Positions 10,882-29,528 are shown, counted from the stretch's first letter. The stretch: 64,000 bases of DNA from Acidibrevibacterium fodinaquatile (GCF_003352165.1 NZ_CP029176.1:3603501-3667500), one strand, 5' to 3'. Notes: generated by a model from the sequence alone, not told the origin. Numbers and translations: made by a program.

Positions 10882-10931
10882 AGTATTGGTCGGGCAGGCG
10901 GGATTTGAACCCACGACCCCCAGTCCCCCAG
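10882..10931. repeat. Left attachment core (att direct repeat)
   Basis: Fifty bases identical to 29447-29496. They correspond to the 3' part of tRNA-Pro plus five flanking bases. To the right the sequence departs from the tRNA at 10932, so this copy is only the duplicated tRNA end. Confidence 0.92.
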
Positions 10932-11365: not shown

Positions 11366-12724
11366 ATGACCAAAGCGGGCCAAATCCGGCTGACCGATAC
11401 CGCCGTGAAGGCGCTCAAATGCCCGCCGGGCAAGCGCGATTGCCTCGTGTTTGACGATCGAATTGCGGGGTTCGGGGTGCGCGTGATGGCTTCCGGCGTG
11501 AAAACCTTCTTGCTGCAATACCAGCTCGGCGGCCGCGGCGGCCGGCGCGAGCGCTATGTGATCGGGCGCCACATGGAGACGCGGATCGCCGACGGGGCGG
11601 CGGTGGTGGTCACGGCGGCTTGGGCGCGCGCCGAAGCCGAGCGCGCTCGCGGCCTCGTCCGCGACGGGCGCAGCCCAAAGACTGCCCGCGTCGGTGCGCC
11701 GAAACAGCGTGTCTATACCTTCGCGCAGCTAGTCGAGGATTGGCGCGCCGGGGCCCTGGTGCGCGCCAGCCCGCGTTACCGCGACGAGGCGCCGGCTTCG
11801 ATCCGGCGATTTTTTGCCGAGCTGCTGCCGTGCGCAGCTTCCTCCCTGGTGCGCGCGCAAGTCCGCGAGATCGTGCAGGCGCATGCGTCGAGCGCGCCGA
11901 TCGGCACGCGCCGCGCGGTGAGCGCCGCTCGCGCCGCGTTCAATTGGGCGCTCAATGAGCGTGACCTCAAAGCGGCCGGTAATCCCTTCGAGCGCGTCAA
12001 TCGCGGAACGGAAGATAGCCGCCAGCGTGTCTTGACGGACGCCGAGCTCGGCGAAGCCTGGCGCGCAGCGCGGGCGCTGGCGCCTCCTTTCGGGGCGTTC
12101 GTGCAACTGCTGATCCTCACCTTGCAGCGCCGAAGCGAACTCGCTGGCATGCGTTGGGACGAGTTGGCGCCGGATTTCTCGGTTTGGACCCTCCCCGCGG
12201 CACGGGCGAAGAACAGCGAGGCGCACCTCGTCCATCTGGTCGACGCGGCGCGCGAGGTGCTGCGGCGGCTGCCGCGTGGCGCCGGCAGCCCGCTTGTCTT
12301 CCCGGCGACGCGAAGCCGCCTCGGCGCCGGCACGGCGCGCCCGATCTCCGGCTTTTCAGATGTGAAAGAGCGGCTGCTCGAGCAAATCCGAGCCGAGCGG
12401 GCGCGGCGGCGCAATTCGCCTCTGGCAGAGACGCCGGTGCCGGATTGGCGCTTTCACGATCTCCGCCGCACGGGGGTGACGATGATGGCGCGCCTCGGGA
12501 TCAGCCCTGCCGTCGCCGACCGCATCCTCAACCACGTCGAACAGCGCAAGGCGACGACGATTGCCGAGGTTTACCAGCGGCACCAGTTTTTGCCCGAACG
12601 CGAGGCGGCGATGGAAATCTGGGCCGCGCACGTGCTGCGTGTCGCGGGCGCCGACGCGCCGGATGCCGAAGCGACGCGCCGAGACTGGGAACGCCCCCCG
12701 GACCCGGGGCATCGTTCCGCATAG
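11366..12724 (+). CDS. int: P4-type tyrosine integrase
   Basis: A 452-residue site-specific recombinase. The N-terminal DUF4102-like arm-binding domain is seen in RLTDTAVKALKCPPGKRD and FGVRVMASGVKTFLLQYQLG. The catalytic domain has Arg255 in LTLQRRSEL, Lys282 in ARAKNSEAH, His364-x-x-Arg367 in FHDLRRTG, His390 in RILNHVE and the nucleophile Tyr403 in EVYQRHQ, so the full catalytic set is present. It lies beside the left att core and is the enzyme expected to insert the element into tRNA-Pro. ATG 11366 follows the AT-rich repeat block, which probably holds its promoter. Confidence 0.95.
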   Translation: MTKAGQIRLTDTAVKALKCPPGKRDCLVFDDRIAGFGVRVMASGVKTFLLQYQLGGRGGRRERYVIGRHMETRIADGAAVVVTAAWARAEAERARGLVRDGRSPKTARVGAPKQRVYTFAQLVEDWRAGALVRASPRYRDEAPASIRRFFAELLPCAASSLVRAQVREIVQAHASSAPIGTRRAVSAARAAFNWALNERDLKAAGNPFERVNRGTEDSRQRVLTDAELGEAWRAARALAPPFGAFVQLLILTLQRRSELAGMRWDELAPDFSVWTLPAARAKNSEAHLVHLVDAAREVLRRLPRGAGSPLVFPATRSRLGAGTARPISGFSDVKERLLEQIRAERARRRNSPLAETPVPDWRFHDLRRTGVTMMARLGISPAVADRILNHVEQRKATTIAEVYQRHQFLPEREAAMEIWAAHVLRVAGADAPDAEATRRDWERPPDPGHRSA

Positions 12725-15682: not shown

Positions 15683-16435
15683 TCAAGTTCGGGCGTGGGC
15701 CGGTGCCGGATCGCGCTTTTTACGGAGGCTCTCGCCGGTGAGTTCGATGCGGTAGGCGTTGTGGACGAGGCGGTCGAGGATGGCGTCGGCGATGGTGGGA
15801 TCGCCGATGATTTCGTACCAGCGCTCGACCGGCACTTGGCTGGTGATGATGACGGAGCGCATCTCGTGGCGGTCATCGATAATTTCCAGCAGATCGCGGC
15901 GTTGGTCCGCGTTCAGGGTCTCGGGGCCCCAATCGTCCAAAATCAACAGGTCGAGCCTGGCGATCTGGCGCAGTGTTCTGGCGTAACGGCCATCGGCGCG
16001 GGCCAGCGCCAGGGCAGAGAACAGCCGCGACACCCGGTGATAGGCGGTCGAGAGATCCTCGCGGCAAGCCTTCTGGCCCAGCGCGCAGGCCAGCCAGCTT
16101 TTGCCGACCCCGCAGGGGCCGGTAATGAGCAGATTATGCCGGGCGCGCACCCAGTCACAGCTGGCGAGTTTCAGGAACTGTGCCCGGTCGAGGCCGCGCG
16201 GGGCGCGGTAATCGACATCCTCGACGCTGGCGGACTGGCGCAATTTGGCCGCGCGGGCGCGGCTCTCGAAGCGTTTCTGCTGTCGCAACGTGGCCTCGTG
16301 CTCGAGCAATAAAGCCAGCCATTCGCCATGGGCCAAACCGGCAACCTCCGGCCGGGCGTCGAGGTCCTTGAAGGCTTTGGCCATGCCGTGCAGGCCGAGT
16401 TTGTGCAGCAGGTCGAGGGTCGGGTGGGTGAGCAT
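15683..16435 (-). CDS. istB: IS21 family helper ATPase IstB
   Basis: A 250-residue AAA+ ATPase with Walker A GPCGVGKS (residues 106-113) and Walker B in LLILDDWG. In IS21 it forms a clamp on target DNA and recruits the IstA transposase. The DnaC-like core IYRVSRL-type region and the C-terminal EIIGDPTIADAILDRL segment are typical of the family. Its start lies 21 bases after the istA stop, so both are made from one transcript. The gene looks intact. Confidence 0.95.
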   Translation of the reverse strand: MLTHPTLDLLHKLGLHGMAKAFKDLDARPEVAGLAHGEWLALLLEHEATLRQQKRFESRARAAKLRQSASVEDVDYRAPRGLDRAQFLKLASCDWVRARHNLLITGPCGVGKSWLACALGQKACREDLSTAYHRVSRLFSALALARADGRYARTLRQIARLDLLILDDWGPETLNADQRRDLLEIIDDRHEMRSVIITSQVPVERWYEIIGDPTIADAILDRLVHNAYRIELTGESLRKKRDPAPAHART

Positions 16436-16456
16436 GCTTGTTCCTTTCAGTGGAAA

Positions 16457-17998
16457 TCAGTGAAAATATTCGGCGCCGCGCAGATTGCTGTGGGTCAGCA
16501 CCGCCTGCGCCTCATCTGGCGGGCTGGCCGTCTGGTCGAGCTTGCTGGCGATGATCGAGGCAATGCTCTTGTAGTTGAACGCGCCAAAGGCGACCGCTCG
16601 GGCCGCCACCGCCTCGGCGCGCGGACGGTCCAACTCCTTGAACAGCCGCAGGATGCCAAGGCATGTCCGAAACCCCTGTTCCGGATGCGGCCGGTTGGCG
16701 AGGATGGCGATGATCAGCCCCTCGGTCTGCGGGCCGATCGATGCGCCCCATGAGCGGAACCGCTCCGGCGTCCATGCGGCGTAGCGCCGGTGCGCGCTCG
16801 GCATATGCTCAGGGGCAGTGCCGTGCCTTGGACCGCCATAGCGGCGCTGATGCACCGCGACCCGCTTGCCTTGGTGGAAGATCTCAACCATCCGCTCGGT
16901 GGCGCGGGTATCGACTTGCTGGCGGATCAGCTGATGCGGCACCGAGTAGAAAAAGCCGCAGACCTCGACATGATAATCCAGCGAGACGCGGGCAAAACCC
17001 CACTCCGCAAACTCATGGTCGGTCTCTGGCAATGCCGCCAAAGCCTGGCGTTCGATCGTCTCGAACAAATGCCGCCGGCTGACGCCGAGCCTGCGCATGA
17101 CATGCGCGTTGATCCGCTCCACCATGCCGGCAATCGCCTGGTTGGCTTCAGCCAGAGAGAAGAAAGTCTGCTGGCGCAACCGGCCCAGAATGTAGCTCTG
17201 GGCAAAGCGGACACCGGCTTCCACCTTCGCCTTGTCCTTCGGGCGCCGCGGCCGGGCCGGCAAAACACCAACACCGTAATGCGAGGCCATCCGGCCATAG
17301 CTCAGGTTGATCTCTGGATCGTAGAACGACGCCTTGTTGACGCCGGACTTCAGATTATCCGGCACGATCAGCCGCGGCACGCCGCCAAAAAACCGGAACA
17401 TGCGGCTATGCGCGCCGATCCAATCCGGCAGCGTCTGGGTCCAGCTCGCCTCCGCGTAGGTGTAGTTCGACGCGCCCAGCACCGCGACAAAAATCTCCGC
17501 CATGCGCACGATGCCAGTTGCGGGATCGGTGATGCCCAACTTTTTGCCGGAATAATCGACGAACACCTTGTCGCCCGCCCGGTGCTCCTGGCGCATGACC
17601 GGTGACAGCCGTGCCTCGAACTCCCTGAACAAATCGCAGAACCGGCTGTAGCTGTACCCTTCCGGATGCCCGGCGCGATATTCCTCCCACAGCACCATCA
17701 GGTTCACGCCCGGGCGCTTGAGCTCGCAGACCAGCTCGCTCCAGACCGGCTCGGCGCGCCGGCGCACCCCCCGCGGCGCGCCGCTGCGGGCAAACAGCCG
17801 CTCCTCCAAAACCGCATCACTGAGGTCGGCCGGCAACGGCCACGCCAGCCCCGCTGCCTGCGCCCGCTTCAGATTGTCCTGGATCGTGCTCCGCGCCACG
17901 CCCAGCATCCGCCCCATCGCCCTGGCGCTGATGCCGTCACTGGCCAGCCGTAAGGTTTGTCGTATCTGCCGCATCGTCAGCTCTCTCTTCGCCGGCAT
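16457..17998 (-). CDS. istA: IS21 family transposase IstA
   Basis: A 513-residue DDE transposase. An N-terminal helix-turn-helix is visible in TLRLASDGISARAMGRMLGV and VARSTIQDNL. The catalytic acids are likely the Asp in VFVDYSGKKLG, the Asp in RLIVPDNLKSGV and the Glu in KDKAKVEAGVRF. A C-terminal domain follows with CGFFYSVPHQLI. It is encoded upstream of istB on the same strand and completes the insertion sequence. No frameshift or internal stop is seen. Confidence 0.95.
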   Translation of the reverse strand: MPAKRELTMRQIRQTLRLASDGISARAMGRMLGVARSTIQDNLKRAQAAGLAWPLPADLSDAVLEERLFARSGAPRGVRRRAEPVWSELVCELKRPGVNLMVLWEEYRAGHPEGYSYSRFCDLFREFEARLSPVMRQEHRAGDKVFVDYSGKKLGITDPATGIVRMAEIFVAVLGASNYTYAEASWTQTLPDWIGAHSRMFRFFGGVPRLIVPDNLKSGVNKASFYDPEINLSYGRMASHYGVGVLPARPRRPKDKAKVEAGVRFAQSYILGRLRQQTFFSLAEANQAIAGMVERINAHVMRRLGVSRRHLFETIERQALAALPETDHEFAEWGFARVSLDYHVEVCGFFYSVPHQLIRQQVDTRATERMVEIFHQGKRVAVHQRRYGGPRHGTAPEHMPSAHRRYAAWTPERFRSWGASIGPQTEGLIIAILANRPHPEQGFRTCLGILRLFKELDRPRAEAVAARAVAFGAFNYKSIASIIASKLDQTASPPDEAQAVLTHSNLRGAEYFH

Positions 17999-19883: not shown

Positions 19884-20909
19884 ATGACGACGCGCGCACC
19901 TTCGCCCGCGGAGATTTCCCGCATGCTTGCCGAGCGGATGCCGTCGCTTGTCGCTGATCTCTGCCCTGCCGCGCGGCGCGAGGGGCACCTCGCACGGATC
20001 GGGAGCCCGGACGGCGAGCCCGGGCAATCCTGCGCGATCCACGTTGGGGGCGCCCGTGCTGGTCGGTGGCACGATTTCGCCTCCGGCCAGGGCGGCGACG
20101 CTCTTGACCTCATCGCCGCCGTCCGCCGGGTGGACCTGCGCGAGGCGATGGCATGGGCGCATAGCTGGCTAGGCACCGGCGCTGATCTTCCCCTGTCGCG
20201 AGAGCCCGCGGCGCCGCGCCCGGCGCCTCCCGCAGAAGACGCCGAGGCGCGGCGGCGGAGCGCGCTGAAAATCTGGCTCGCCGCGCGCGCTTCGCTCGCC
20301 GGCACGCCGGCGGAAGCGTATCTTGCCCGGCGTGGCATAGACCTCGCGGAACTGGCGCGGGCGCCGCGCGCGCTGCGCTTTCACCCGGGCCTTTGGTGCC
20401 GGGAGGCAGGCGCGCATCTCCCGGCCCTCGTCGCCGCCGTCATTCGCGGGGGCGACCTATGCGCAATTCATCGCACCTATCTCGCGGAAACGCAGCCCGG
20501 CAAGTGGACAAAGGCACGGCTCGCGAGCCCGAAGCGGAGCCTCGGCTCGCTCGCGGGGGGCGTCATTCCGCTTCAGCGCGGCGCCTCCGGCAGGCCGCTG
20601 CGCGCGGCGCCGGACGGCGACGCAGCGGTGATCGGCGAAGGGCTCGAAACCTGCCTTTCCATCGCCATCGCGTGCCCTGAATTCCGTGTTCTCTGCGCGG
20701 TCAGCCTCGGGAATCTGTGCGCGGCCGACCTCCCCCCGGCGGTGACGCGCATCATCCTCGCGGCGGACAATGACGTTGCGCCGGGCGCGCAAAAGCTGCT
20801 GCGCCGCGCAGCCCAGAACTTCATCGAACAAGGCCGGGAGGTGCGGATCGCCCGCTCGCCCGTCGGCAAAGATTTCAACGACTGCCTGAAAGAAAGTCAA
20901 AGCCAATGA
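19884..20909 (+). CDS. Toprim-domain primase-like protein (phage/plasmid DUF7146-type)
   Basis: A 341-residue protein. The N-terminal part has GRWHDFASGQGGDALDLI (about residues 60-77), typical of primase-like proteins of phages and plasmids. The C-terminal Toprim domain has the catalytic Glu252 in GEGLETCLSIA and the acidic pair Asp295 and Asp297 in ILAADND. A central segment TPAEAYLARRGID matches the helical linker of the group. It should make primers for element replication together with the DUF927 protein, whose gene it overlaps by four bases. No N-terminal zinc ribbon is apparent. Confidence 0.85.
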   Translation: MTTRAPSPAEISRMLAERMPSLVADLCPAARREGHLARIGSPDGEPGQSCAIHVGGARAGRWHDFASGQGGDALDLIAAVRRVDLREAMAWAHSWLGTGADLPLSREPAAPRPAPPAEDAEARRRSALKIWLAARASLAGTPAEAYLARRGIDLAELARAPRALRFHPGLWCREAGAHLPALVAAVIRGGDLCAIHRTYLAETQPGKWTKARLASPKRSLGSLAGGVIPLQRGASGRPLRAAPDGDAAVIGEGLETCLSIAIACPEFRVLCAVSLGNLCAADLPPAVTRIILAADNDVAPGAQKLLRRAAQNFIEQGREVRIARSPVGKDFNDCLKESQSQ

Positions 20910-22804
20910 GCGAAGACGCGATCAGCATCACTGAAGCAAGGAAACGCCGCAACGCAAAGGCCGGGGTGCGGCGCGCGGTGGAAGCGGCGCCCGTCGCCGA
21001 CCCCGCGGCGGCCGCCGACGCAGAGGCGCGCAGCGCCGCGCGCTTCACGATGACCGCGGACGGCCTGTATAAAAACGTGCCTGGCAAGCTTCCCGAAAGA
21101 ATCTGCGATCATTTCGACGTTCTCGGAGAGACCACGGAGCCGGCAAGCAAAGCTTGGGGTCTCCTCATCGCTTTTCGTGACCGCGACATGCGCGAGGTGC
21201 AATACGTTGCCGGGCGCGACGCATTCACTGGCGAAAGCCTCGAACTCACCCGCGCATTGGCGCGGCTCGGCTTTAGCATTCGCCCCGGCCGCACGGCGGC
21301 GAACGCGCTGGCGGAGTATCTTTTCTCAATCCAATCGGTGAAGCGTGCTTTTATCGTTGCGCAAAGCGGCTGGCATCTTATCGATAACGCCCGGCTGTTC
21401 GTGCTGCCGGACTTCGTCGCCGGCGACGGGGAAAGGCGGGTGATCCATCAATCACGTTTGAGCGGCGTCTCGCCCTTCGCCACGGCCGGCACGCTCGAAG
21501 CTTGGCGCGACAATGTCGCGGCGCTCGCCGTCGGTAATTCTCGCCTTACTTTGTCGATTTCGTGCGCCTTTGCCGGGCTTCTGCTCGACCTGGTTGGCGA
21601 AGATGGCGGCATCGTCCATCTCCGCGGTCACGCGAAAAGCGGTAAAACCACATGTCTCCGCGCTGCCGCCTCGGTGTGGGGATATCCCGGCGCCGGGCGC
21701 CGAACGAGCTTCATGCGCACCTGGCGCGCGACCTCGGTCGGTCTCGAGGAAATCGCCGCCATGCATTCCGACACGTTTTTGCCGCTCGACGAGCTCGGCG
21801 CGGCTGACGGGCGAGACGTCGGGGACGTGGTCTATTTTCTCTCCTCCGGCCAGGGTCGCGCGCGCGGCAGCCGCGGCGGCGGCTTGCGCGAGCCGCTTTA
21901 TTTCCGCGTCATGTCCCTCTCGTCGGGGGAAATCGGCCTTGCCGACAAAATGGAGGAGGCAGCCAAGGGCACGCGCGCCGGCCAGGAAATTCGCCTGCTC
22001 GATCTCGACGCGGTCGCCGACCGGGAAATTGGCGCGTTCGAGACCCTGCACGGGGCGCCCTCTCTCGCCGCTTTTGCCGCCGCTCTTGTCCGCGGCGCCG
22101 TGGAAAACCACGGGCAAGCCGGCCCGGCGTTCGCAGACTATTTGATCAAGCGGCTCCGCGACGATCCCGCCTTTGGTCCGGGCTTGGCGGACGACGCAAG
22201 CGCGCTTGCCGCGACCTGGCTGGGAAACGTCCCGAACGTGGGGGCGCAGGTTGCGACCGCGGCGCGCCGCTTCGCATTGGTCGCCATTGCCGGGAGCCTG
22301 GCAACGAAGGCCGGGCTCACCGGCTGGGGCGCGCCGGCGGCGCGGGAGGCCGCGCATAAATGCTTTCTCGCATGGCTTGACGGGCGCGGGTTTGCCGGCA
22401 GCCGTGAGGACGAAGACGCGATTTCGCGTCTCCGCGCCTTCTGCCAGACTCATGGCAAAGCTCGCTTCGAGGAATGGCCCGAGCCGCGTGGCGCGCAAGC
22501 GGAATTCGAGGCGCCGGAGGATCTGCGCGGAGACCGGGTGCAAGTCCATAACCGTGCCGGCTGGCGGCGCTGGATGCACAACGACGACGGCGGCCAATCT
22601 TGGCGCTATTACCTCACCGCGCCGGCGATGCGCGAGGCGCTGGCGGGCCTCGATTATCGGCGCTCGCTTCAGGTGTTGGCTGAGCGCGGCTTCGTCGGCA
22701 TCGACAAAGATCGCAAACCCGGCGGAACTGTGCGCGTGCCGGGATACGACACGCAACGCCTCTATATGGTTTTCCCGAAGCTTTTTGCGGATGCCCGCGA
22801 GTAA
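20906..22804 (+). CDS. DUF927 helicase-like protein
   Basis: A 632-residue P-loop protein. After an N-terminal domain (about residues 45-145) the DUF927 core contains Walker A GHAKSGKT (241-248) and Walker B with Asp295-Glu296 in FLPLDELGAA. The C-terminal half includes KCFLAWLDGRG and RVQVHNRAGWRRWM, as in plasmid and phage replicative helicase-like proteins. It overlaps the Toprim gene by an ATGA junction, giving a primase/helicase pair. That pairing suggests the element can replicate after excision. A truncated second copy of its N-terminal domain occurs at 23408-23836 on the other strand. Confidence 0.85.
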   Translation: MSEDAISITEARKRRNAKAGVRRAVEAAPVADPAAAADAEARSAARFTMTADGLYKNVPGKLPERICDHFDVLGETTEPASKAWGLLIAFRDRDMREVQYVAGRDAFTGESLELTRALARLGFSIRPGRTAANALAEYLFSIQSVKRAFIVAQSGWHLIDNARLFVLPDFVAGDGERRVIHQSRLSGVSPFATAGTLEAWRDNVAALAVGNSRLTLSISCAFAGLLLDLVGEDGGIVHLRGHAKSGKTTCLRAAASVWGYPGAGRRTSFMRTWRATSVGLEEIAAMHSDTFLPLDELGAADGRDVGDVVYFLSSGQGRARGSRGGGLREPLYFRVMSLSSGEIGLADKMEEAAKGTRAGQEIRLLDLDAVADREIGAFETLHGAPSLAAFAAALVRGAVENHGQAGPAFADYLIKRLRDDPAFGPGLADDASALAATWLGNVPNVGAQVATAARRFALVAIAGSLATKAGLTGWGAPAAREAAHKCFLAWLDGRGFAGSREDEDAISRLRAFCQTHGKARFEEWPEPRGAQAEFEAPEDLRGDRVQVHNRAGWRRWMHNDDGGQSWRYYLTAPAMREALAGLDYRRSLQVLAERGFVGIDKDRKPGGTVRVPGYDTQRLYMVFPKLFADARE

Positions 22805-22859: not shown

Positions 22860-23414
22860 TTATGCCGAGGATGCGGGCAGCCAGCGATAAAGCGTTGGCA
22901 AAGACACGCCGAGGTTTTTTGCGACTTCCCGCGGCCGCACGCCGGACCCGAGCAGCGTGCGCGCGGCGTCCATCTTGCTCGGCGTCATCTTGCGCTTGCG
23001 GCCGCCAACGCGGCCGGCGGCGCGCGCCGCCGCGAGCCCGGCGCGGGTGCGCTCGACGATCATCTCGCGTTCCATCTCGGCGAGGCTCGCCATCACGTGA
23101 AAGAAGAACCGGCCGGCCGCGGTGCCGGTGTCGATCGCCTCGGTCAGGCTGCGGAAATGCACGTCCCGGTCACGTAACTGAAGCGTCACGCTGACGAGCT
23201 GCGAGACGCTGCGGCCGAGACGGTCGAGCTTCCAGACTACCAGCGTATCGCCGGCGCGCAGAAGGTCCAAGGCGTTGGCGAGGCCGGGGCGATCCTCTCG
23301 GGTGCCCCCGGCCTTATCTTCGACGACCCGCTCGCACCCGGCTTGCGCCAGCGCCGCGCGTTGGAGATCGAGATTTTGATCCTGCGTCGAAACCCGCGCA
23401 TAGCCGATCAGCAT
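22860..23414 (-). CDS. Serine recombinase (resolvase/invertase, TnpR/Pin type)
   Basis: A 184-residue small serine recombinase. The nucleophile is Ser9 in MLIGYARVSTQDQ. Other family blocks are VVWKLDRLGRSVSQL, AGRFFFHVMASLAEMERE and a C-terminal helix-turn-helix with RPREVAKNLGVSLPTLYRWL. Such enzymes resolve cointegrates or invert DNA at short crossover sites. It starts inside the end of the truncated DUF927 frame, which it may have truncated when it arrived. It converges with the intact DUF927 gene, 55 bases away. Confidence 0.93.
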   Translation of the reverse strand: MLIGYARVSTQDQNLDLQRAALAQAGCERVVEDKAGGTREDRPGLANALDLLRAGDTLVVWKLDRLGRSVSQLVSVTLQLRDRDVHFRSLTEAIDTGTAAGRFFFHVMASLAEMEREMIVERTRAGLAAARAAGRVGGRKRKMTPSKMDAARTLLGSGVRPREVAKNLGVSLPTLYRWLPASSA

Positions 23415-23836
23415 GCGCGCCCCGACGGATCGCTCTCCGGCTCGCCGAACGCCGCGAGATAGGCTTTCACTGCCCGTGCGGCGGCTCGGCTTGGGCGCAC
23501 AGTAAAGCCGCGCCGGGCGAGCAGCCGGGCGAGATCGAAGGGAGACCGGCGGAAGAGGCGGTGCGGCACCACAAGGCGCACCTCCTCGCGGTTTCGGTCA
23601 AGGAACCGGACCAGCATCCCCGAGGCGCGCGCCTCGGGGTCGTAAGCGTTGCCGAGCACGTCGATGCGGCCGCAAACCAGCTCGGGAAACCCACCAGGGC
23701 GAAGGCGGAGCAGCCCGTCGCCGGTCAGCCGGTAGCGCTCCCCGGTGGTTGCCTCGGCCGCCGCCACGGCTGCCTGAAGAGCGCTCTGAGCGCGCCGCGC
23801 GCTGCGCGCCTCCGCAAGATCGATCGTCGCCGCCAT
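23408..23836 (-). pseudogene. Truncated N-terminal domain of a second DUF927 protein
   Basis: A 142-residue frame whose residues about 35-130 align without gaps to residues about 46-143 of the intact DUF927 protein. Shared positions include the R-F/Y-x-x-T-x-DGL start, a central P-E-x-x-C-x-x-x-DVLG, and LARxGFxxRPxRxAAxAxxxYL. The ATPase core is missing: the frame stops where the resolvase gene begins. It is therefore a broken paralogue on the opposite strand. A short functional protein cannot be ruled out, because the remaining domain is complete. Confidence 0.7.
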
Positions 23837-23874: not shown

Positions 23875-23992
23875 AGGGTAAGGATTTGAGAAATCTATTT
23901 CAAGAAAGGATTTCGAGAACCGCGACGCCGCGATCTTCGGTCACACCCTAACCCCGCTCGCCACCCTCTCGAAAACGGCCGTTTACGAGAGG
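23875..23992. promoter_or_regulatory. Spacer with a 28-bp near-perfect palindrome and short repeats
   Basis: 23965-23992 reads CCTCTCG then AAAACGGCCGTTTA then CGAGAGG, a palindrome with one mismatched pair, centred on CGGCCG. Just left, AAGGATTT occurs twice around GAAATCTATTTC (23880-23915). The palindrome is 80 bases past the subtilase stop, fitting a terminator. The neighbouring resolvase makes a recombination site an alternative. Confidence 0.5.
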
Positions 23993-24073
23993 CGATCGGC
24001 GTTCGATGCGCGCGCGTGAATATGGCGCGCCGTTATAGGCACCAGGTCCGCGCAACAAGTGATTCAGTTTCGG

Positions 24074-26704
24074 CTAAGGCCTGGCGCGGATGCGGAGGGC
24101 TTGGCGCACTTCATCGTAGACCCGCACCGCCTCTCCGGCCTCGATGGTGACCGCGAGGCCATAGCGGATTGATTGATCAAGTGCGCCACCCTGCTCGCGG
24201 CAGAAGACCCGTAGCGCGAGCGTATTGCCGTCTACAAATGCAACGGCACGCTCGCCGGCGTAGCGGACGTGAAACAGCGATCCCCGCGGCACCGCTTTGT
24301 CTGAAGGCTGCCCGGCCACCCGCCTCACACCGAAGCCGGCCTCCGGACTGTCCGGAGCAACTTCCAGCTTTGCCCGGCGATAAGCCCTATGCCGGATATT
24401 CACCGGCGAGAACCAAGCCAGCGAGACCGTCAGTGCGCGCGGTTTACGCACGCGCTCAAGACTTGGCGGAAGCGGAATGCGATATAGGGCTGCCTGCTCA
24501 TCGGCCGGAATCTCGCCATAGCCGATCATCGTCGCGCGGTTCACGGCGCATTCCATAGCCTCATGAATCGCCGGTCGGCCGTAGCCCAACAGCCGGGCAA
24601 TGCCATCCCGGCGCACAACATGAGTTCCCTGCCCTTGCGGCTGCCAAGTCAGATCGAGCAGTTCACCGATGCTGCCCCATTGTGCCCGATGCACCAACAT
24701 CGCCTTGACGATCACCCCGTAGAAGGCCGGATCGACATCCTCCAACAGATTGCCATTGTCCGGATCGGAGAGCGCCTCGAAGATCCTATGTGCCGCCCGC
24801 GTGGCTAGCGCCGTCGCGGCGCTGGTCCCAGAACTGTAGCCCTCCCGGGTTAGGTCTCCCCGGGCATCCGGCACAGCGCAGCGCAAACCATAAAGCCGTC
24901 CTGGCCTCACGATATCCAGTCTAACGCCGGTCCCGCCATTTGGTGCGGCTCTAACCAACTCCCGGCCTCCGGGCATGAAGATGTCCGGCTTGACGACCTT
25001 CCGGTGCCCGAGCCCGAGCGCCGAGGAGATATTGGGGCCGGGCTTATCAGCGAAAGGCGAAAAAATTCCCTCGACTTTTATCGGCGGCGCGCCGTCCTCG
25101 TGCCAAGCACCGACGGTGACCGCATTCAGCGATTCCGCTGGAGATAACAGCGTGCGCATTGCTTGCTGCGCCCCCAGCGCGCGAAGGATAGCCGCCTCCC
25201 GGTCCGGCGCCGAGACCTTCTCGAACTCGATCAGTCCGGCAAAATCGGGGACGACAAGCGGTTCAATCACGTTACCAGCACTGACCAGGAACAAGATGCC
25301 GTATCTATCCGCGAGATAGTCAAGCAAGCGCCCCCACGGGCTCATCGGTCCCGTGAACGGCCGATTCCGATCCCCGAGCGACAGGTTGACGATGAACACA
25401 GCCGGCCCGGTCGCCTCACCCTCGTCATCGCCCTCCTTCATCCGGAGGACTGCCCGATAGATCAAGTCCAGCAGCAGCCGGTCGCGCAGCGGGCGTTCAT
25501 TGCCGCCGCCGCCCGGCGCATAGAGTACGGGCCGGAAATAAACCGGCCGGGACAACGGCTCCTCCCCGAGACTGCGATCACCATGCAGAATTAAGGATGC
25601 CATCTCCGTCCCATGCCGGCGTTCCGCGACCACGCTCATCGCGTCGAAATCATCAGGATCATCCAGCACGAGGCGCCCGGCCAGTAGTGCATGGTTCTGC
25701 ACCGGCATCGCGTCGAACACGGCGGCGATGGGAGGCAACAGCCGTGCTGGCTCGGGCGGCGGAGGGGCTTTGTCGTCAAGCGGCTCGCCCTCGATAGGAA
25801 ACTGGACAGTCGATTGCGGCCGCACCATCATAATGTCGTCGCAGATCGCCAAGCTGACTTCTTCCCGATTGATCAGCCGTTGCACCTCCGCGGCCGGAAG
25901 GTCCACCAGACGGCCCACATAGCCGATCTCAGCGATCTCGGACTGGTCAACGATCACGCCCTCGGCTGCTGCGATCGCCCGCGAGAAACTCGCCTGTATT
26001 GCGCTGCGTTTGGCGGCTGTGGCGGCATACCAGAGTTCGACTTCCACGCGCACAATGCCGTCCGCGCCCTGCGCGGCCAGCTCTTCTTCGAGATAACGAA
26101 TCGTCTCGCCCGGAACCCGGTCCTTTGGCCCCCAAGCGCGCAGCGTGCGCAGCTTCTTGAAAACGTCGAACCAGGGCGCGAAGCCAAAAGGTGGTTCTTC
26201 GCCTGCCTCATACCTTCGCCACAGCGAGAGTAAGTGCTGTAGCGCCTGAACATCAGGCATCGCCATATAGAGTCGGCCGGCGATCGGTTTGTCGTCGCGA
26301 ATACCCGGCGCCCGCCCCTTGCGCTTCTCTATCACCCCAAAATCGTCATCCGGCTCGAGGATCAACTCCTCATCCGCCAGAAAATCGAGACCATCGATCC
26401 GGGCGACCGCAGCGCTGAAATCGTCGATTGAGCCCGCCATCTCGAAAACAAGCGCACGCTCTGGCGCGATCCCGAGCGGGTCTTCACGCAAGGCTACCGG
26501 GTCGCGCTTCTGATCGAAGATATTTTGGAGCCGTTGGAAGGCGGGGCCGAGCCGTTCGCGTTGCCGGGCACGTGAGGGCGTCTGAATACTGCTTCCACCG
26601 CCGCCGCCATTCGGCCGCTTGTCACGCCCCGGCTTCGGAACCGGCAGAAGGGGGTATTCTTTCACGCGCAGCGTCCTCCCGAGCATGCGGCGAGGTTTTG
26701 GCAT
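24074..26704 (-). CDS. Subtilisin-like (S8 family) protease of an AAA-ATPase-linked operon
   Basis: An 876-residue protein with a complete subtilase triad: Asp331 in IAAVFDAMP, His364 in RRHGTEMAS and Ser628 in SSGTSAATALATRAA. The oxyanion Asn478 is in LFLVSAGN. About 300 residues precede the protease core and about 230 follow it. There is no signal peptide, so it acts in the cytosol. The N-terminus has a Gly/Pro-rich linker and then a domain containing RALVFEMAGSIDDFSAAV. It overlaps the end of the AAA ATPase gene by 83 bases (65 if Met7 is the start), implying coupled translation. By context the ATPase probably senses or unfolds and the protease cuts. The target is unknown; a defence or conflict role is inferred. 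Confidence 0.88.
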   Translation of the reverse strand: MPKPRRMLGRTLRVKEYPLLPVPKPGRDKRPNGGGGGSSIQTPSRARQRERLGPAFQRLQNIFDQKRDPVALREDPLGIAPERALVFEMAGSIDDFSAAVARIDGLDFLADEELILEPDDDFGVIEKRKGRAPGIRDDKPIAGRLYMAMPDVQALQHLLSLWRRYEAGEEPPFGFAPWFDVFKKLRTLRAWGPKDRVPGETIRYLEEELAAQGADGIVRVEVELWYAATAAKRSAIQASFSRAIAAAEGVIVDQSEIAEIGYVGRLVDLPAAEVQRLINREEVSLAICDDIMMVRPQSTVQFPIEGEPLDDKAPPPPEPARLLPPIAAVFDAMPVQNHALLAGRLVLDDPDDFDAMSVVAERRHGTEMASLILHGDRSLGEEPLSRPVYFRPVLYAPGGGGNERPLRDRLLLDLIYRAVLRMKEGDDEGEATGPAVFIVNLSLGDRNRPFTGPMSPWGRLLDYLADRYGILFLVSAGNVIEPLVVPDFAGLIEFEKVSAPDREAAILRALGAQQAMRTLLSPAESLNAVTVGAWHEDGAPPIKVEGIFSPFADKPGPNISSALGLGHRKVVKPDIFMPGGRELVRAAPNGGTGVRLDIVRPGRLYGLRCAVPDARGDLTREGYSSGTSAATALATRAAHRIFEALSDPDNGNLLEDVDPAFYGVIVKAMLVHRAQWGSIGELLDLTWQPQGQGTHVVRRDGIARLLGYGRPAIHEAMECAVNRATMIGYGEIPADEQAALYRIPLPPSLERVRKPRALTVSLAWFSPVNIRHRAYRRAKLEVAPDSPEAGFGVRRVAGQPSDKAVPRGSLFHVRYAGERAVAFVDGNTLALRVFCREQGGALDQSIRYGLAVTIEAGEAVRVYDEVRQALRIRARP

Positions 26705-27659
26705 TCCACATTTTCAGCCGTTCCTCGACGATCTTTCTCAGCGGCGTTTCTCCCATGGCCAGGACATGTCGGCGACGGACATCGAGACAGAACTCCTCCG
26801 CCTCAGCATAGCTGATCGCGCCAAGTGCCTTGACGATCATGCCGGGCGAACGACCCAGGGGTTCTTCCATGCGGTCGACAAAGCGCTGGAAATAAGCCGT
26901 CAATTCGGCCCGTGTCGGGGCCTTCAGCGATAGCCGGAGCTGGAACCGGCGCCAGACGGCGCGATCCAGCAGTTCGCTGTGGTTCGTTGCCGCTACAACG
27001 ACCGCGTAGCTGGGGAGATCGTCCATTTGCATTAGTAAAGAGGTCACGACGCGTTTGATTTCGCCCGTCTCATGTTCATCGCCGCGCTCCTTGCCGACGG
27101 CATCGAACTCGTCGAAAAACAGAACGCAGGGCGTTGTCCGCACGTAGTCGAACACGCGCCTTAGCCGGGCCGCCGTCTCGCCGAGATAGCTCCCGATCAT
27201 CGCGTCATAGCGGACGACGAAGAACGGAAGCGCCAATGCCTCTGCAATCGCCTCGGCGAGCGACGTCTTGCCGTTTCCGGGTGGTCCGGAAAGTAATATG
27301 CGATGACGGGGTTCGAGAGAATGCGCCCTGAGCACCGAGGCACGCTGTTGTTCCTCGATCAATTCCTCACAGGCGCGTCGGTTCAATTCTGAAAGGACCA
27401 AATCTTCGATCCGTTTCTCTGGTGTCAGCTCAAGGAGAAATTCCCTTTGCCGACCAGCGCCTGCGCCAAGAATCGCCGGCGCGTTAGGTCGATGGCCATT
27501 GCCGTTCACATGCAATGCCTTCGCCAGGCGATCCGCGAGAACATTGTGGCTTTTAGCCTTTTCCTCGGCGATGAGCGCCTCGGCAGTCGCGCGGACACTT
27601 CGCGAGTCGCCGCTCGATCCCGCCTTCACTAGCGAAATGAGCAGATCACTCCTTGCCAT
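26622..27659 (-). CDS. AAA+ ATPase paired with the subtilase
   Basis: A 345-residue AAA+ protein of the FtsH/spastin-like class. Walker A is GPPGNGKT (residues 125-132), Walker B is VLFFDEFD with Asp183 and Glu184, sensor 1 is Asn226 in AATNHSELLD, and Arg237-Arg238 are candidate arginine fingers. About 95 residues precede the ATPase domain. No membrane segment or protease motif is present. It starts inside the end of the ribbon-helix-helix gene and ends inside the subtilase gene, so the three are one coupled operon. A role in activating or feeding the subtilase is inferred. Confidence 0.92.
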   Translation of the reverse strand: MARSDLLISLVKAGSSGDSRSVRATAEALIAEEKAKSHNVLADRLAKALHVNGNGHRPNAPAILGAGAGRQREFLLELTPEKRIEDLVLSELNRRACEELIEEQQRASVLRAHSLEPRHRILLSGPPGNGKTSLAEAIAEALALPFFVVRYDAMIGSYLGETAARLRRVFDYVRTTPCVLFFDEFDAVGKERGDEHETGEIKRVVTSLLMQMDDLPSYAVVVAATNHSELLDRAVWRRFQLRLSLKAPTRAELTAYFQRFVDRMEEPLGRSPGMIVKALGAISYAEAEEFCLDVRRRHVLAMGETPLRKIVEERLKMWNAKTSPHAREDAARERIPPSAGSEAGA

Positions 27660-27864
27660 TGTTTAGTCCCCGCCTTGCTGCATTACGCTGACCGCACCTC
27701 TCACGATCGAGCTTTTCGACGACGGCCTCGAGAATCCAGGTATTTCGCGGCACGCGGACGGCTCGGACTTTGCGATCCCGATCGATATTGCTGACCAGCG
27801 CACGCGGGACGCGCACCGTCAGCACGGCAACTTCCTCACCAGTTTCTTTCTTTAGCCTCCCCAT
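27646..27864 (-). CDS. Small ribbon-helix-helix-like protein
   Basis: A 72-residue protein starting MGRLKKETGEEVAVLTVRVP. The pattern of a beta strand (AVLTVRVPRALV), a first helix and then NTWILEAVVEKLDRE looks like an Arc/CopG-type ribbon-helix-helix DNA-binding fold. ATG 27864 is preceded by an AGGCGGGG stretch; further Met codons upstream in the same frame lack a ribosome-binding site. It overlaps the AAA gene by 14 bases. As first gene of the AAA/subtilase operon it is likely an autorepressor, keeping a potentially harmful system silent. That role is inferred. Confidence 0.65.
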   Translation of the reverse strand: MGRLKKETGEEVAVLTVRVPRALVSNIDRDRKVRAVRVPRNTWILEAVVEKLDRERCGQRNAARRGLNNGKE

Positions 27865-28025
27865 GCCCCCGCCTACCATGCCAGATATGATTTTGCCATC
27901 AGATAGATGGTATTTTTCCCCGCTCCTGGCCGCCGCGGATCGCATGAGCGCGACGCTTCCCCGCGCCAGCAGGGTGGGAGGGGAGGGAACTCCCGTCCGT
28001 CAAGGACGTGAGGGACATCGTCGCG

Positions 28026-28394
28026 TCAGTCGGGGGTGAGGGCCGCGAGGGCGGCTTCCGGTGCCTTGGCGAGGATCCGAAGCAGGGCACGCGCCGGGCC
28101 GCGCGGGAGGCGTTTGCCTTGCTCCCAGTTCCGGACGGTCGCGACCGGCAAGCCTAAACGTGCGGCGAAAGCGTCTTGTGACAGCCCCACTTTGTGCCGG
28201 ACGTGGCGCGCCCAAGCGGCGGCATCCTCGCGCGCCTCCGCGTCGTCCTCGGTCTGATGGCGGGCGATATCGTCCTCGGTCGTGGCGTCGATGCGGGACC
28301 AATCCGCTTGGGGCGCGACCGGGGCCTCGCTGCCATCGGCGAGCAGGCGCGCCACGCGGCCATCTTCCCGCAAGCGTGCTTTAACCCTCGTCAT
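28026..28394 (-). CDS. Helix-turn-helix antitoxin (BrnA-position partner of BrnT)
   Basis: A 122-residue protein starting MTRVKARLREDGRV. The C-terminal half is a clear XRE-type helix-turn-helix: KVGLSQDAFAARLGLPVATV followed by RNWEQGKRLP. The N-terminal half is acidic (DATTEDDIARHQTEDDAEA) and may wrap the toxin. Its ATG lies within the end of the toxin gene, giving a 14-base overlap. Family knowledge: BrnT toxins often pair with ribbon-helix-helix BrnA, but helix-turn-helix partners also occur. It probably represses the operon. Confidence 0.8.
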   Translation of the reverse strand: MTRVKARLREDGRVARLLADGSEAPVAPQADWSRIDATTEDDIARHQTEDDAEAREDAAAWARHVRHKVGLSQDAFAARLGLPVATVRNWEQGKRLPRGPARALLRILAKAPEAALAALTPD

Positions 28395-28656
28395 GGTGCT
28401 TCCTTTCCTTCTCGCTCGCCTTGCGGGCCGAGATGATGCGCCAGCGTCCGGCGCGCGGGGTGTAGACGATGACAAAGAGGCGCCCCGCCACGCGGCCAAA
28501 GAGCCGAAATCGAGGCTCCCCGTAGTCAAAGCGGTGATCCGGTTCGACCCGTCGCCCGGGATCGGCGAAAGCGGGCAGCACGTCCGCGAAGGAAAATCCG
28601 CGCTCGCGCCGGCATTTCTCGCTCTTGGCGGCGTTCCATTCGAACTCCATCGGCAT
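28381..28656 (-). CDS. brnT: BrnT family toxin
   Basis: A 91-residue protein starting MPMEFEWNAAKSEKCRRERG. BrnT hallmarks are the N-terminal FEWNxAK, SFADVLPAF, the RFDYGEPRF turn and the C-terminal RIISARKASEKERK. BrnT folds like RelE and acts as an mRNA-cleaving toxin. Start could be Met at 28656 or 28650. Neither has a clear ribosome-binding site, and a TATATAAG box lies only a few bases upstream, so a leaderless transcript is possible. With the HTH antitoxin it forms a toxin-antitoxin pair likely to stabilise the element. Confidence 0.85.
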   Translation of the reverse strand: MPMEFEWNAAKSEKCRRERGFSFADVLPAFADPGRRVEPDHRFDYGEPRFRLFGRVAGRLFVIVYTPRAGRWRIISARKASEKERKHHDEG

Positions 28657-29446
28657 CGGCTTATATAGGCCGCTGGCGCAGGGATTGCGAGCGTCGCGTC
28701 TCGCGGTGCGCCTTGCGCGCTCGCCGGGGGAGTGCCAATGCGCCCGAAAGACGCCTCGACAAGATCGCGTCAGCACGCATCGCGCAGCATCGTGGACACC
28801 AAGCCGGACATCACAATAAGGGATAAGTCGCGTTTTATGCGATTTTGCCTCATGTTATACGATTGTGCCTCGTGTTATACGACTGCCAGAAAAAAAACCA
28901 AGGCTTTTCAATGGTGTAACATTGTGATGCGTGTTATGCGTTTTTTCGCGTAAAGTTCGTGAGTGCAATGCGCGCTATGCAATAAACGTGGTATTACAGT
29001 GAGATAGGCGCGAACAGGGCGCGCGGTAACGCGTTCTTGGACCGGTCGGCCCGGGTGTCCGCATCACACGCCGCGCGGGCTTCGCGCCGGGCGTCGCCGA
29101 CCTTGCGCGCCTCTCGAGGCGTGCCGCACGCGCTTCCTGAGATGCGTCCGACCGTCGGCACGCGCACCGGCGGCCGAGGCAGCGCGCGACCGCAAGGGGC
29201 TCGAGAAAGGCGCCTCGGCGCGGGTCCTTCCCGAGCAAAAAACGTCTCCGCGGGTAATTCGACCCCCGGGCGCGCGCGCGCTTTTTCAAAAAAAATCAGC
29301 GCGTTATGTTGCGGCTCGCGTTTGCATGGCGCGCGGCACGCGCGCGCGCATTAGCGCGGGAAAGCGCGAGGCGCCCCTTTGCGTTGGTCCGCCGTTGGTC
29401 CGCGAAGGCGTTTTTCCGGCGGCCGATCGAGATTTAACCCATTGAA
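28657..29446. other. Right-end non-coding region of the element
   Basis: No convincing gene is seen in these 790 bases. The region holds the toxin promoter side, an AT-rich repeat cluster (28826-28940), a very GC-rich stretch near 29080-29280, and the repeated TTGGTCCGC pair at 29384-29404 next to the right att core. It could contain attP arm sites or a replication origin. Confidence 0.5.
28826..28945. repeat. Iteron-like repeats with GTTATrCG core
   Basis: Two adjacent 20-base units, 28846-28865 and 28866-28885, share TGCCTCrTGTTATACGAyTG with two differences. Related cores occur at about 28831 (TTTTATGCGA) and 28930 (CGTGTTATGCG). The stretch is AT-rich. Such direct repeats are typical of replication initiator or repressor binding sites. 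Confidence 0.65.
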
Positions 29447-29496
29447 AGTATTGGTCGGGCAGGCGGGATTTGAACCCACGACCCCCAGTCCCCCAG
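29447..29496. repeat. Right attachment core (att direct repeat)
   Basis: Identical over 50 bases to 10882-10931. It lies within the 3' part of the intact tRNA-Pro gene, so integration restored a functional tRNA. Confidence 0.92.
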
Positions 29497-29528
29497 ACTG
29501 ATGCGCTACCAGGCTGCGCTACTGCCCG
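29452..29528 (-). tRNA. tRNA-Pro (anticodon GGG)
   Basis: Seventy-seven bases on the minus strand, starting CGGGCAGTAGCGCAGCCTGG and ending with an encoded CCA. The acceptor arms CGGGCAG and CTGCCCG pair fully. The anticodon stem TCAGT/ACTGG encloses the loop CTGGGGG, giving anticodon GGG. The T arm has GTTCAAATC. This gene is the integration site of the element to its left, and its 3' half is duplicated at 10887-10931. Confidence 0.97.

What the first reader, a model, noticed from the sequence alone, without database searches (positions are those of the whole stretch)
24074..27864. Ribbon-helix-helix / AAA+ ATPase / cytosolic subtilase operon on a mobile element: candidate conflict system
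Seen: three overlapping genes (14 and 65-83 base overlaps). The first encodes a small RHH-like protein, the second a complete AAA+ ATPase (Walker A, Walker B, sensor Asn), and the third an 876-residue subtilase with intact Asp331/His364/Ser628 and no signal peptide. Known: protease and ATPase partners on mobile elements are common in anti-phage and abortive-infection systems. Inference: the ATPase senses or remodels a target, the protease then cleaves it, and the RHH protein keeps the operon quiet. I recall AAA/subtilase pairs in islands but cannot name a characterised system that matches this three-gene form.
Basis: partly seen in the sequence, partly recalled or inferred. Interest (0 to 1): 0.75.

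Follow-up and report, generated by a model that had tools for sequence, protein, structure and literature searches.

The report
IetAS protease toxin cassette with RHH gene
The three genes are a copy of a known bacterial toxin–antitoxin and anti-phage pair (IetAS: a self-poisoning protease held in check by an ATPase), here travelling on a mobile island together with a third, apparently undescribed DNA-binding gene that probably controls it.

Summary
The pair is not an unnamed system: PADLOC identifies both proteins over nearly full length as IetS (E 9e-294) and IetA (E 2e-149). Homologous pairs are toxin–antitoxin modules in published work (SGI1 sgiAT, a mycoplasma pair, pTiC58 ietAS), and IetAS is also catalogued as anti-phage.

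What is new is the small RHH-like gene. It is under strong purifying selection and overlaps ietA by 14 nt in 8 of 8 close homologues, spread over at least four families. It maps to one clade of alphaproteobacterial IetAS. In three clade members it is decayed or truncated while ietA and ietS stay intact, so it looks like a dispensable regulator, not the antitoxin. Its other relatives sit directly after ParA-type ATPases in plasmid partition cassettes.

The cassette is cargo on an ~18.6 kb tRNA-Pro island. A sister island at the same site in another species of the genus has the same backbone but lacks exactly this segment, and carries a MazE/MazF-like pair instead.

Best reading: a three-gene IetAS variant serving island stability and/or phage defence, with a partition-derived RHH autoregulator. 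Modest novelty.

The parts
24074..26704 (-). ietS: cytosolic subtilase (S8), predicted toxin; catalytic Asp331/His364/Ser628. The start used by relatives corresponds to about 26686.
   Evidence: PADLOC IetS PDLC04233 E 9.2e-294, residues 16-875; Pfam Peptidase_S8; triad conservation
26622..27659 (-). ietA: AAA+ ATPase, predicted antitoxin (Walker A GPPGNGKT from residue 125, Walker B LFFDEFDA from residue 180, sensor Asn in VAATN from residue 222)
   Evidence: PADLOC IetA PDLC04232 E 2.1e-149; Pfam AAA E 4e-31; motifs; best PDB sequence matches are p97/Cdc48-class AAA
27646..27864 (-). RHH-like gene, 72 aa, ends 14 nt inside ietA; predicted DNA-binding autoregulator
   Evidence: conserved in 8 of 8 close homologues; dN well below dS; homologue L039 weakly matches PF01402 RHH_1, E 0.016
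27894..27912 (.). candidate operator: imperfect inverted repeat TACCATC-TATCT-GATGGCA (minus strand) about 40 nt upstream of the RHH start; the TGATGGC half-site is exact at -37 in 4 of 6 loci and at -38 with one mismatch in a fifth
   Evidence: suggestive only, the inverted repeat alone is not above chance
23993..27976 (.). cassette present here and absent from the sister island at the same tRNA-Pro in the same genus
   Evidence: BLASTN against G004:C33 (L025): backbone matches stop at 23992 and resume at 27977
10882..10931 (.). island end: 50-bp direct repeat of the tRNA-Pro 3' end
29447..29496 (.). other island end: 50-bp direct repeat reaching into tRNA-Pro(ggg) 29452-29528
11366..12724 (+). 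tyrosine integrase (Arm-DNA-bind_3 + Phage_integrase) of the island
19884..22804 (+). Toprim/DUF7146 gene and DUF927 gene of the island backbone (primase/helicase-like)
28026..28776 (-). neighbouring BrnT toxin gene (28381-28776) and XRE-type HTH antitoxin-like gene (28026-28529)
   Evidence: PF04365 E 1e-21, HTH_3

Best explanation
The locus is an IetAS toxin-antitoxin/defence module in a three-gene form, carried as cargo on a tRNA-Pro integrative island. IetS is a cytosolic subtilisin-like protease that is toxic when free (inferred from homologues). IetA, a p97/Cdc48-like AAA+ ATPase made from the same message, holds it inactive (inferred from homologues). If the element is lost, or if an infection upsets IetA, the protease is released and digests host proteins, killing or arresting the cell; this keeps the island in the population and may limit phage (inferred). 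The RHH-like protein, encoded first and overlapping ietA, most likely binds TGATGGC-type half-sites just upstream and tunes expression of the operon (inferred). Its ancestry lies with RHH-like partners of ParA in plasmid partition cassettes (shown by similarity and gene order).
For: Near full-length IetS and IetA profile matches. Adjacency of the two families in 41 loci; loci with only one partner are mostly short or cut. Toxin and antitoxin roles shown for homologous pairs: SGI1 sgiAT, where deletion raises island loss when an IncA/C plasmid is present (PMC5006074), and the mycoplasma AAA/subtilase pair (PMC8562856). Cassette present or absent between sister islands, with MazE/MazF-like genes on the other. 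RHH purifying selection, clade restriction and decay in three members. ParA-RHH relatives. Conserved TGATGGC near -37.
Against: No function was tested for this copy. It does not reach the NCBIfam equivalog cut-offs of the anti-phage subfamily (50 of 900 bits for IteS, 240 of 510 for IteA). The RHH assignment rests on sequence pattern, on similarity to ParA-partner proteins and on one weak Pfam hit to a homologue; the AF2 monomer model has pLDDT 49. The operator is suggestive only.
Confidence: 0.8

Rival explanations
1. The module is chiefly an anti-phage abortive-infection system (as IetAS is catalogued): IetA senses a phage product or phage replication and releases IetS.
For: IetAS is listed as a defence system in PADLOC and NCBIfam and in surveys. 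Outgroup IetAS loci lie beside Gabija and type I RM genes. A review lists ietAS among systems linked to functional phage proteins such as DNA polymerase or SSB (PMC10286901).
Against: Neighbours in the window's own subclade are mainly conjugation, recombination and transposition genes, with one type III RM case. The sister island carries a MazE/MazF-like pair instead, a stability-type swap. The two roles are not exclusive.
Confidence: 0.35
2. The RHH protein, not IetA, is the antitoxin of IetS (as in many type II TA pairs), and IetA is an accessory.
For: RHH antitoxins are common (general knowledge); the gene leads the operon.
Against: The RHH gene is absent from most IetAS operons and is decayed or truncated in three clade members that keep intact ietA and ietS. 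IetA-type ATPases are the shown antitoxins.
Confidence: 0.05
3. One reading: IetA remodels a specific target which IetS then cleaves (a regulated protease, not a toxin restrained by its partner).
For: AAA-protease partnerships such as FtsH or ClpXP work this way (general knowledge); IetA resembles p97/Cdc48-class ATPases.
Against: Homologous proteases are toxic without the ATPase, and deleting the ATPase gene alone was lethal in JCVI-syn2.0 while deleting the protease or both was viable (PMC8562856).
Confidence: 0.12

Closest known systems
IetAS (pTiC58 ietA/ietS, Yamamoto 2009 as cited in PMC5006074; PADLOC IetA/IetS)
   Same: AAA+ ATPase gene followed by an overlapping or adjacent subtilase gene; near full-length profile match; mobile-element location
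   Different: A third, RHH-like gene leads the operon in this subclade; the proteins are distant from the NCBIfam anti-phage equivalogs. The pTiC58 proteins were not compared directly.
SGI1 sgiAT (S026-S025)
   Same: Same two protein families on an integrase-carrying chromosomal island; toxin-antitoxin activity shown; supports island maintenance (PMC5006074)
   Different: Described as a two-gene operon; its regulation was stated to be unidentified
Mycoplasma TA132/133 (AAA-ATPase / subtilisin-like protease)
   Same: Same pair; toxin and antitoxin roles confirmed (PMC8562856)
   Different: Two-gene; chromosomal in Mycoplasma
ParA-RHH plasmid partition-type cassettes (for example Methylobacterium nodulans pMNOD05, Ca. 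Bealeia plasmid)
   Same: Small proteins 36-39% identical in the alignment, sharing the PRNTWILxAxxEKL block, encoded directly after an ATPase gene
   Different: Partner is a ParA-type ATPase, not IetAS; gene order is ATPase then RHH, whereas here the RHH gene comes first

Membership tests
IetAS (PADLOC definition) | AAA+ ATPase matching an IetA profile | tested here: met
   PDLC04232 E 2.1e-149, residues 1-327 on profile 1-325 of 330
IetAS (PADLOC definition) | S8 protease matching an IetS profile with intact catalytic triad | tested here: met
   PDLC04233 E 9.2e-294; D331, H364, S628 conserved
IetAS (PADLOC definition) | ietA and ietS adjacent, same strand, ietA first | tested here: met
   83-nt overlap; same arrangement in relatives
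IetAS | IetS toxic, neutralised by IetA | not testable with these tools
   shown only for homologues
IetAS | anti-phage activity | not testable with these tools
   experiment needed
NCBIfam IteA/IteS anti-phage equivalogs (NF042959, NF042956) | score above the curated cut-offs | tested here: not met
   239.6 of 510 bits and 50.4 of 900 bits: not a member of the subfamily those models represent
Ribbon-helix-helix (Pfam RHH_1 / CopG-like) | significant profile match | tested here: inconclusive
   window protein: none; homologue L039: PF01402 E 0.016, below the curated cut-off
Ribbon-helix-helix | strand-helix-helix fold, dimer | tested here: inconclusive
   AF2 monomer shows helices 48-60 and 69-94 after an extended stretch, but pLDDT is only 49
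Type II TA with RHH antitoxin | RHH gene kept wherever the toxin is kept | tested here: not met
   RHH decayed, truncated or absent while ietA and ietS stay intact

The most novel reading that the evidence does not exclude
The RHH protein is a captured partition-type DNA binder that ties control of the IetS protease to the presence or copy number of the mobile element's own DNA. Loss of the element, or arrival of a competitor with the same sites, would be sensed through RHH titration and translated into protease release, giving a physical link between plasmid-type incompatibility and a protease toxin.
Probability: 0.1. Interest if true: 0.65.

Novelty: new variant of a known kind. Interest (0 to 1): 0.32.

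Why it matters
IetAS is widespread, but its control and mechanism are described as unknown (PMC5006074, PMC9958689). A clade in which a conserved gene with partition-type ancestry leads the operon offers a concrete handle on how the protease is kept silent and when it is let loose. The natural present/absent pair of sister islands, with a MazE/MazF-like pair on the other, supports treating IetAS as an interchangeable stability module.

Tried and rejected
AF2 of the RHH protein (pLDDT 49) and of IetS (pLDDT 35, shallow alignment) were too poor for fold searches, so none was run. PDB sequence search found no relative of the RHH or IetS profiles. No Rfam RNA in the island apart from the tRNA. The promoter scan gave nothing above chance. 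No relatives in the phage collection. Two viral-collection contigs carry the whole three-gene cassette, but whether these are true viruses was not checked. I looked for pTiC58 ietAS in two stretches of that record and did not reach it; I did not fetch more of that plasmid and relied on papers and profiles instead. Considered and rejected: RHH as the antitoxin; chance ORF (excluded by selection); secreted or housekeeping subtilase (no signal segment, IetS profile match). Gao 2020 and Yamamoto 2009 are not held in the library; what I say of them beyond citing papers is from memory. A full-text search for IetS together with ribbon-helix-helix found no paper.

Full report
OBSERVATION. The three ORFs exist as described, on the minus strand: RHH-like 27646-27864 within a longer ORF to 27945, AAA+ 26622-27659, subtilase 24074-26704. 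The 14-nt overlap is exact. The second overlap is 83 nt, or 65 nt from the start codon used by relatives. The catalytic Asp331, His364 and Ser628 are invariant among 11 aligned homologues, and the Walker A, Walker B and sensor-Asn motifs are conserved in IetA. The small ORF is a real gene: in its 39-residue core, dN is 0.06-0.21 in comparisons with the window, against dS of 1.2-2.0, and the Met at 27864 is the conserved start.

IDENTITY. PADLOC calls the protease IetS (PDLC04233, E 9e-294, residues 16-875) and the ATPase IetA (PDLC04232, E 2e-149). NCBIfam names the same families (IteS, IteA), but both proteins stay well below the equivalog cut-offs, so this is a separate subfamily from the one those models represent. 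ietA and ietS lie together in 41 loci, usually overlapping or within about 30 nt; loci with one partner only are mostly cut short.

WHAT IS KNOWN OF THE PAIR. In SGI1 the homologous pair sgiAT was shown to be a toxin (subtilase) and antitoxin (ATPase) that reduces loss of the island when an IncA/C plasmid is present. The authors cite pTiC58 ietAS as the closest system and state that regulation and inducers remain to be identified (PMC5006074). In mycoplasmas the same kind of pair was confirmed as toxin and antitoxin (PMC8562856). IetAS is also listed as an anti-phage system whose mechanism is undescribed (PMC9958689). I recall its experimental anti-phage test as Gao 2020, which was not available.

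THE THIRD GENE. All five close homologues found in genomes (L001-L005, 75-84% IetS identity, in Geminicoccaceae, Paracoccaceae, Roseobacteraceae and Acetobacteraceae) have the RHH-like gene in the same place, ending 14 nt inside ietA. So do two viral-collection contigs. With the window this makes 8 of 8. A more distant member (L039) has a 57-aa homologue that weakly matches PF01402 RHH_1 (E 0.016), and L032 has a more divergent RHH-like ORF with the same 14-nt overlap. On the IetA tree the RHH-bearing loci and three with truncated or broken remnants (L026, L027, L040) fall together: 9 rows with 99/96 support, 11 rows with only 80/52. About fifteen other IetAS loci with enough upstream sequence show no RHH, and a sister pair (L072, L073) has another, HTH-like ORF there. 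The RHH gene therefore looks like a single acquisition that can be lost, which suits a regulator and not the antitoxin.

ORIGIN OF THE RHH. Outside IetAS its closest relatives lie directly downstream of ParA-type ATPase genes on small plasmids and other replicons (L035-L038, L115, L117). The shared block is PRNTWILxAxxEKL. I infer recruitment from a partition-type RHH lineage. Upstream of the RHH start, a TGATGGC half-site is kept at -37 in four of six loci and, with one mismatch, at -38 in a fifth. In L002 the stretch cannot extend the RHH frame because stops intervene, so conservation there is at DNA level. The inverted repeat itself is not above chance in single sequences, so the operator is only a candidate.

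THE ISLAND. A perfect 50-bp repeat that includes the tRNA-Pro(ggg) 3' end lies at 10882-10931 and 29447-29496, with a tyrosine integrase just inside. The island includes an IS21 pair, Toprim/DUF7146 and DUF927 genes and a resolvase. Another species of the genus (G004) holds a sister island at the same tRNA gene, with main backbone stretches 87-91% identical. Its similarity stops at window 23992 and resumes at 27977, leaving out exactly the three-gene cassette. That island carries a MazE-like/PemK (MazF) pair with no counterpart here. This shows that the three genes form one unit of gain or loss, and suggests that islands of this type exchange TA modules.

CONTEXT. Neighbours in the RHH subclade include TrbL/TrbI or other type IV secretion genes (L002, L005, L032), a transposase (L003), recombinases and one type III RM system. 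Outgroup lineages have Gabija GajA and type I RM genes nearby. The sample is small and neighbour ORFs were called crudely, so this contrast is a lead, not a result.

MECHANISM. Most likely: IetA holds IetS inactive; loss of the element or an infection frees IetS, which damages the host; the RHH protein tunes the operon. Shown here: gene content, conservation, clade, cargo status. Shown elsewhere for homologues: toxin and antitoxin roles, island maintenance. Inferred: RHH function, trigger, target, and any anti-phage role of this copy.

VERDICT. A known kind of system in a three-gene variant. Interest is modest, and lies in the regulator.

Noticed in passing
28026-28776 (-): BrnT toxin plus XRE-type HTH antitoxin-like pair next to the cassette: a second TA module on the island. 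The sister island has only fragments of this region.
   Followed up: partly
L025:12922-13531 (G004:C33): Sister island at the same tRNA-Pro carries a MazE-like/PemK (MazF) pair that the window's island lacks: interchangeable TA cargo.
   Followed up: yes
15683-17998 (-): IS21-type transposase and IstB pair inside the island.
   Followed up: no
23408-23836 (-): Short second DUF927-like fragment (PF06048, just above cut-off) beside a resolvase, on the opposite strand to the full DUF927 gene at 20906-22804.
   Followed up: no
L072 and L073, upstream of ietA: A different, HTH-like ORF occupies the position of the RHH gene in another IetAS lineage, suggesting repeated recruitment of DNA-binding regulators.
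   Followed up: partly
L112 and L113 (viral-collection contigs): RHH homologues with the NTWILEA block but without an IetAS or ParA match in the stretch held; partners unknown.
   Followed up: no
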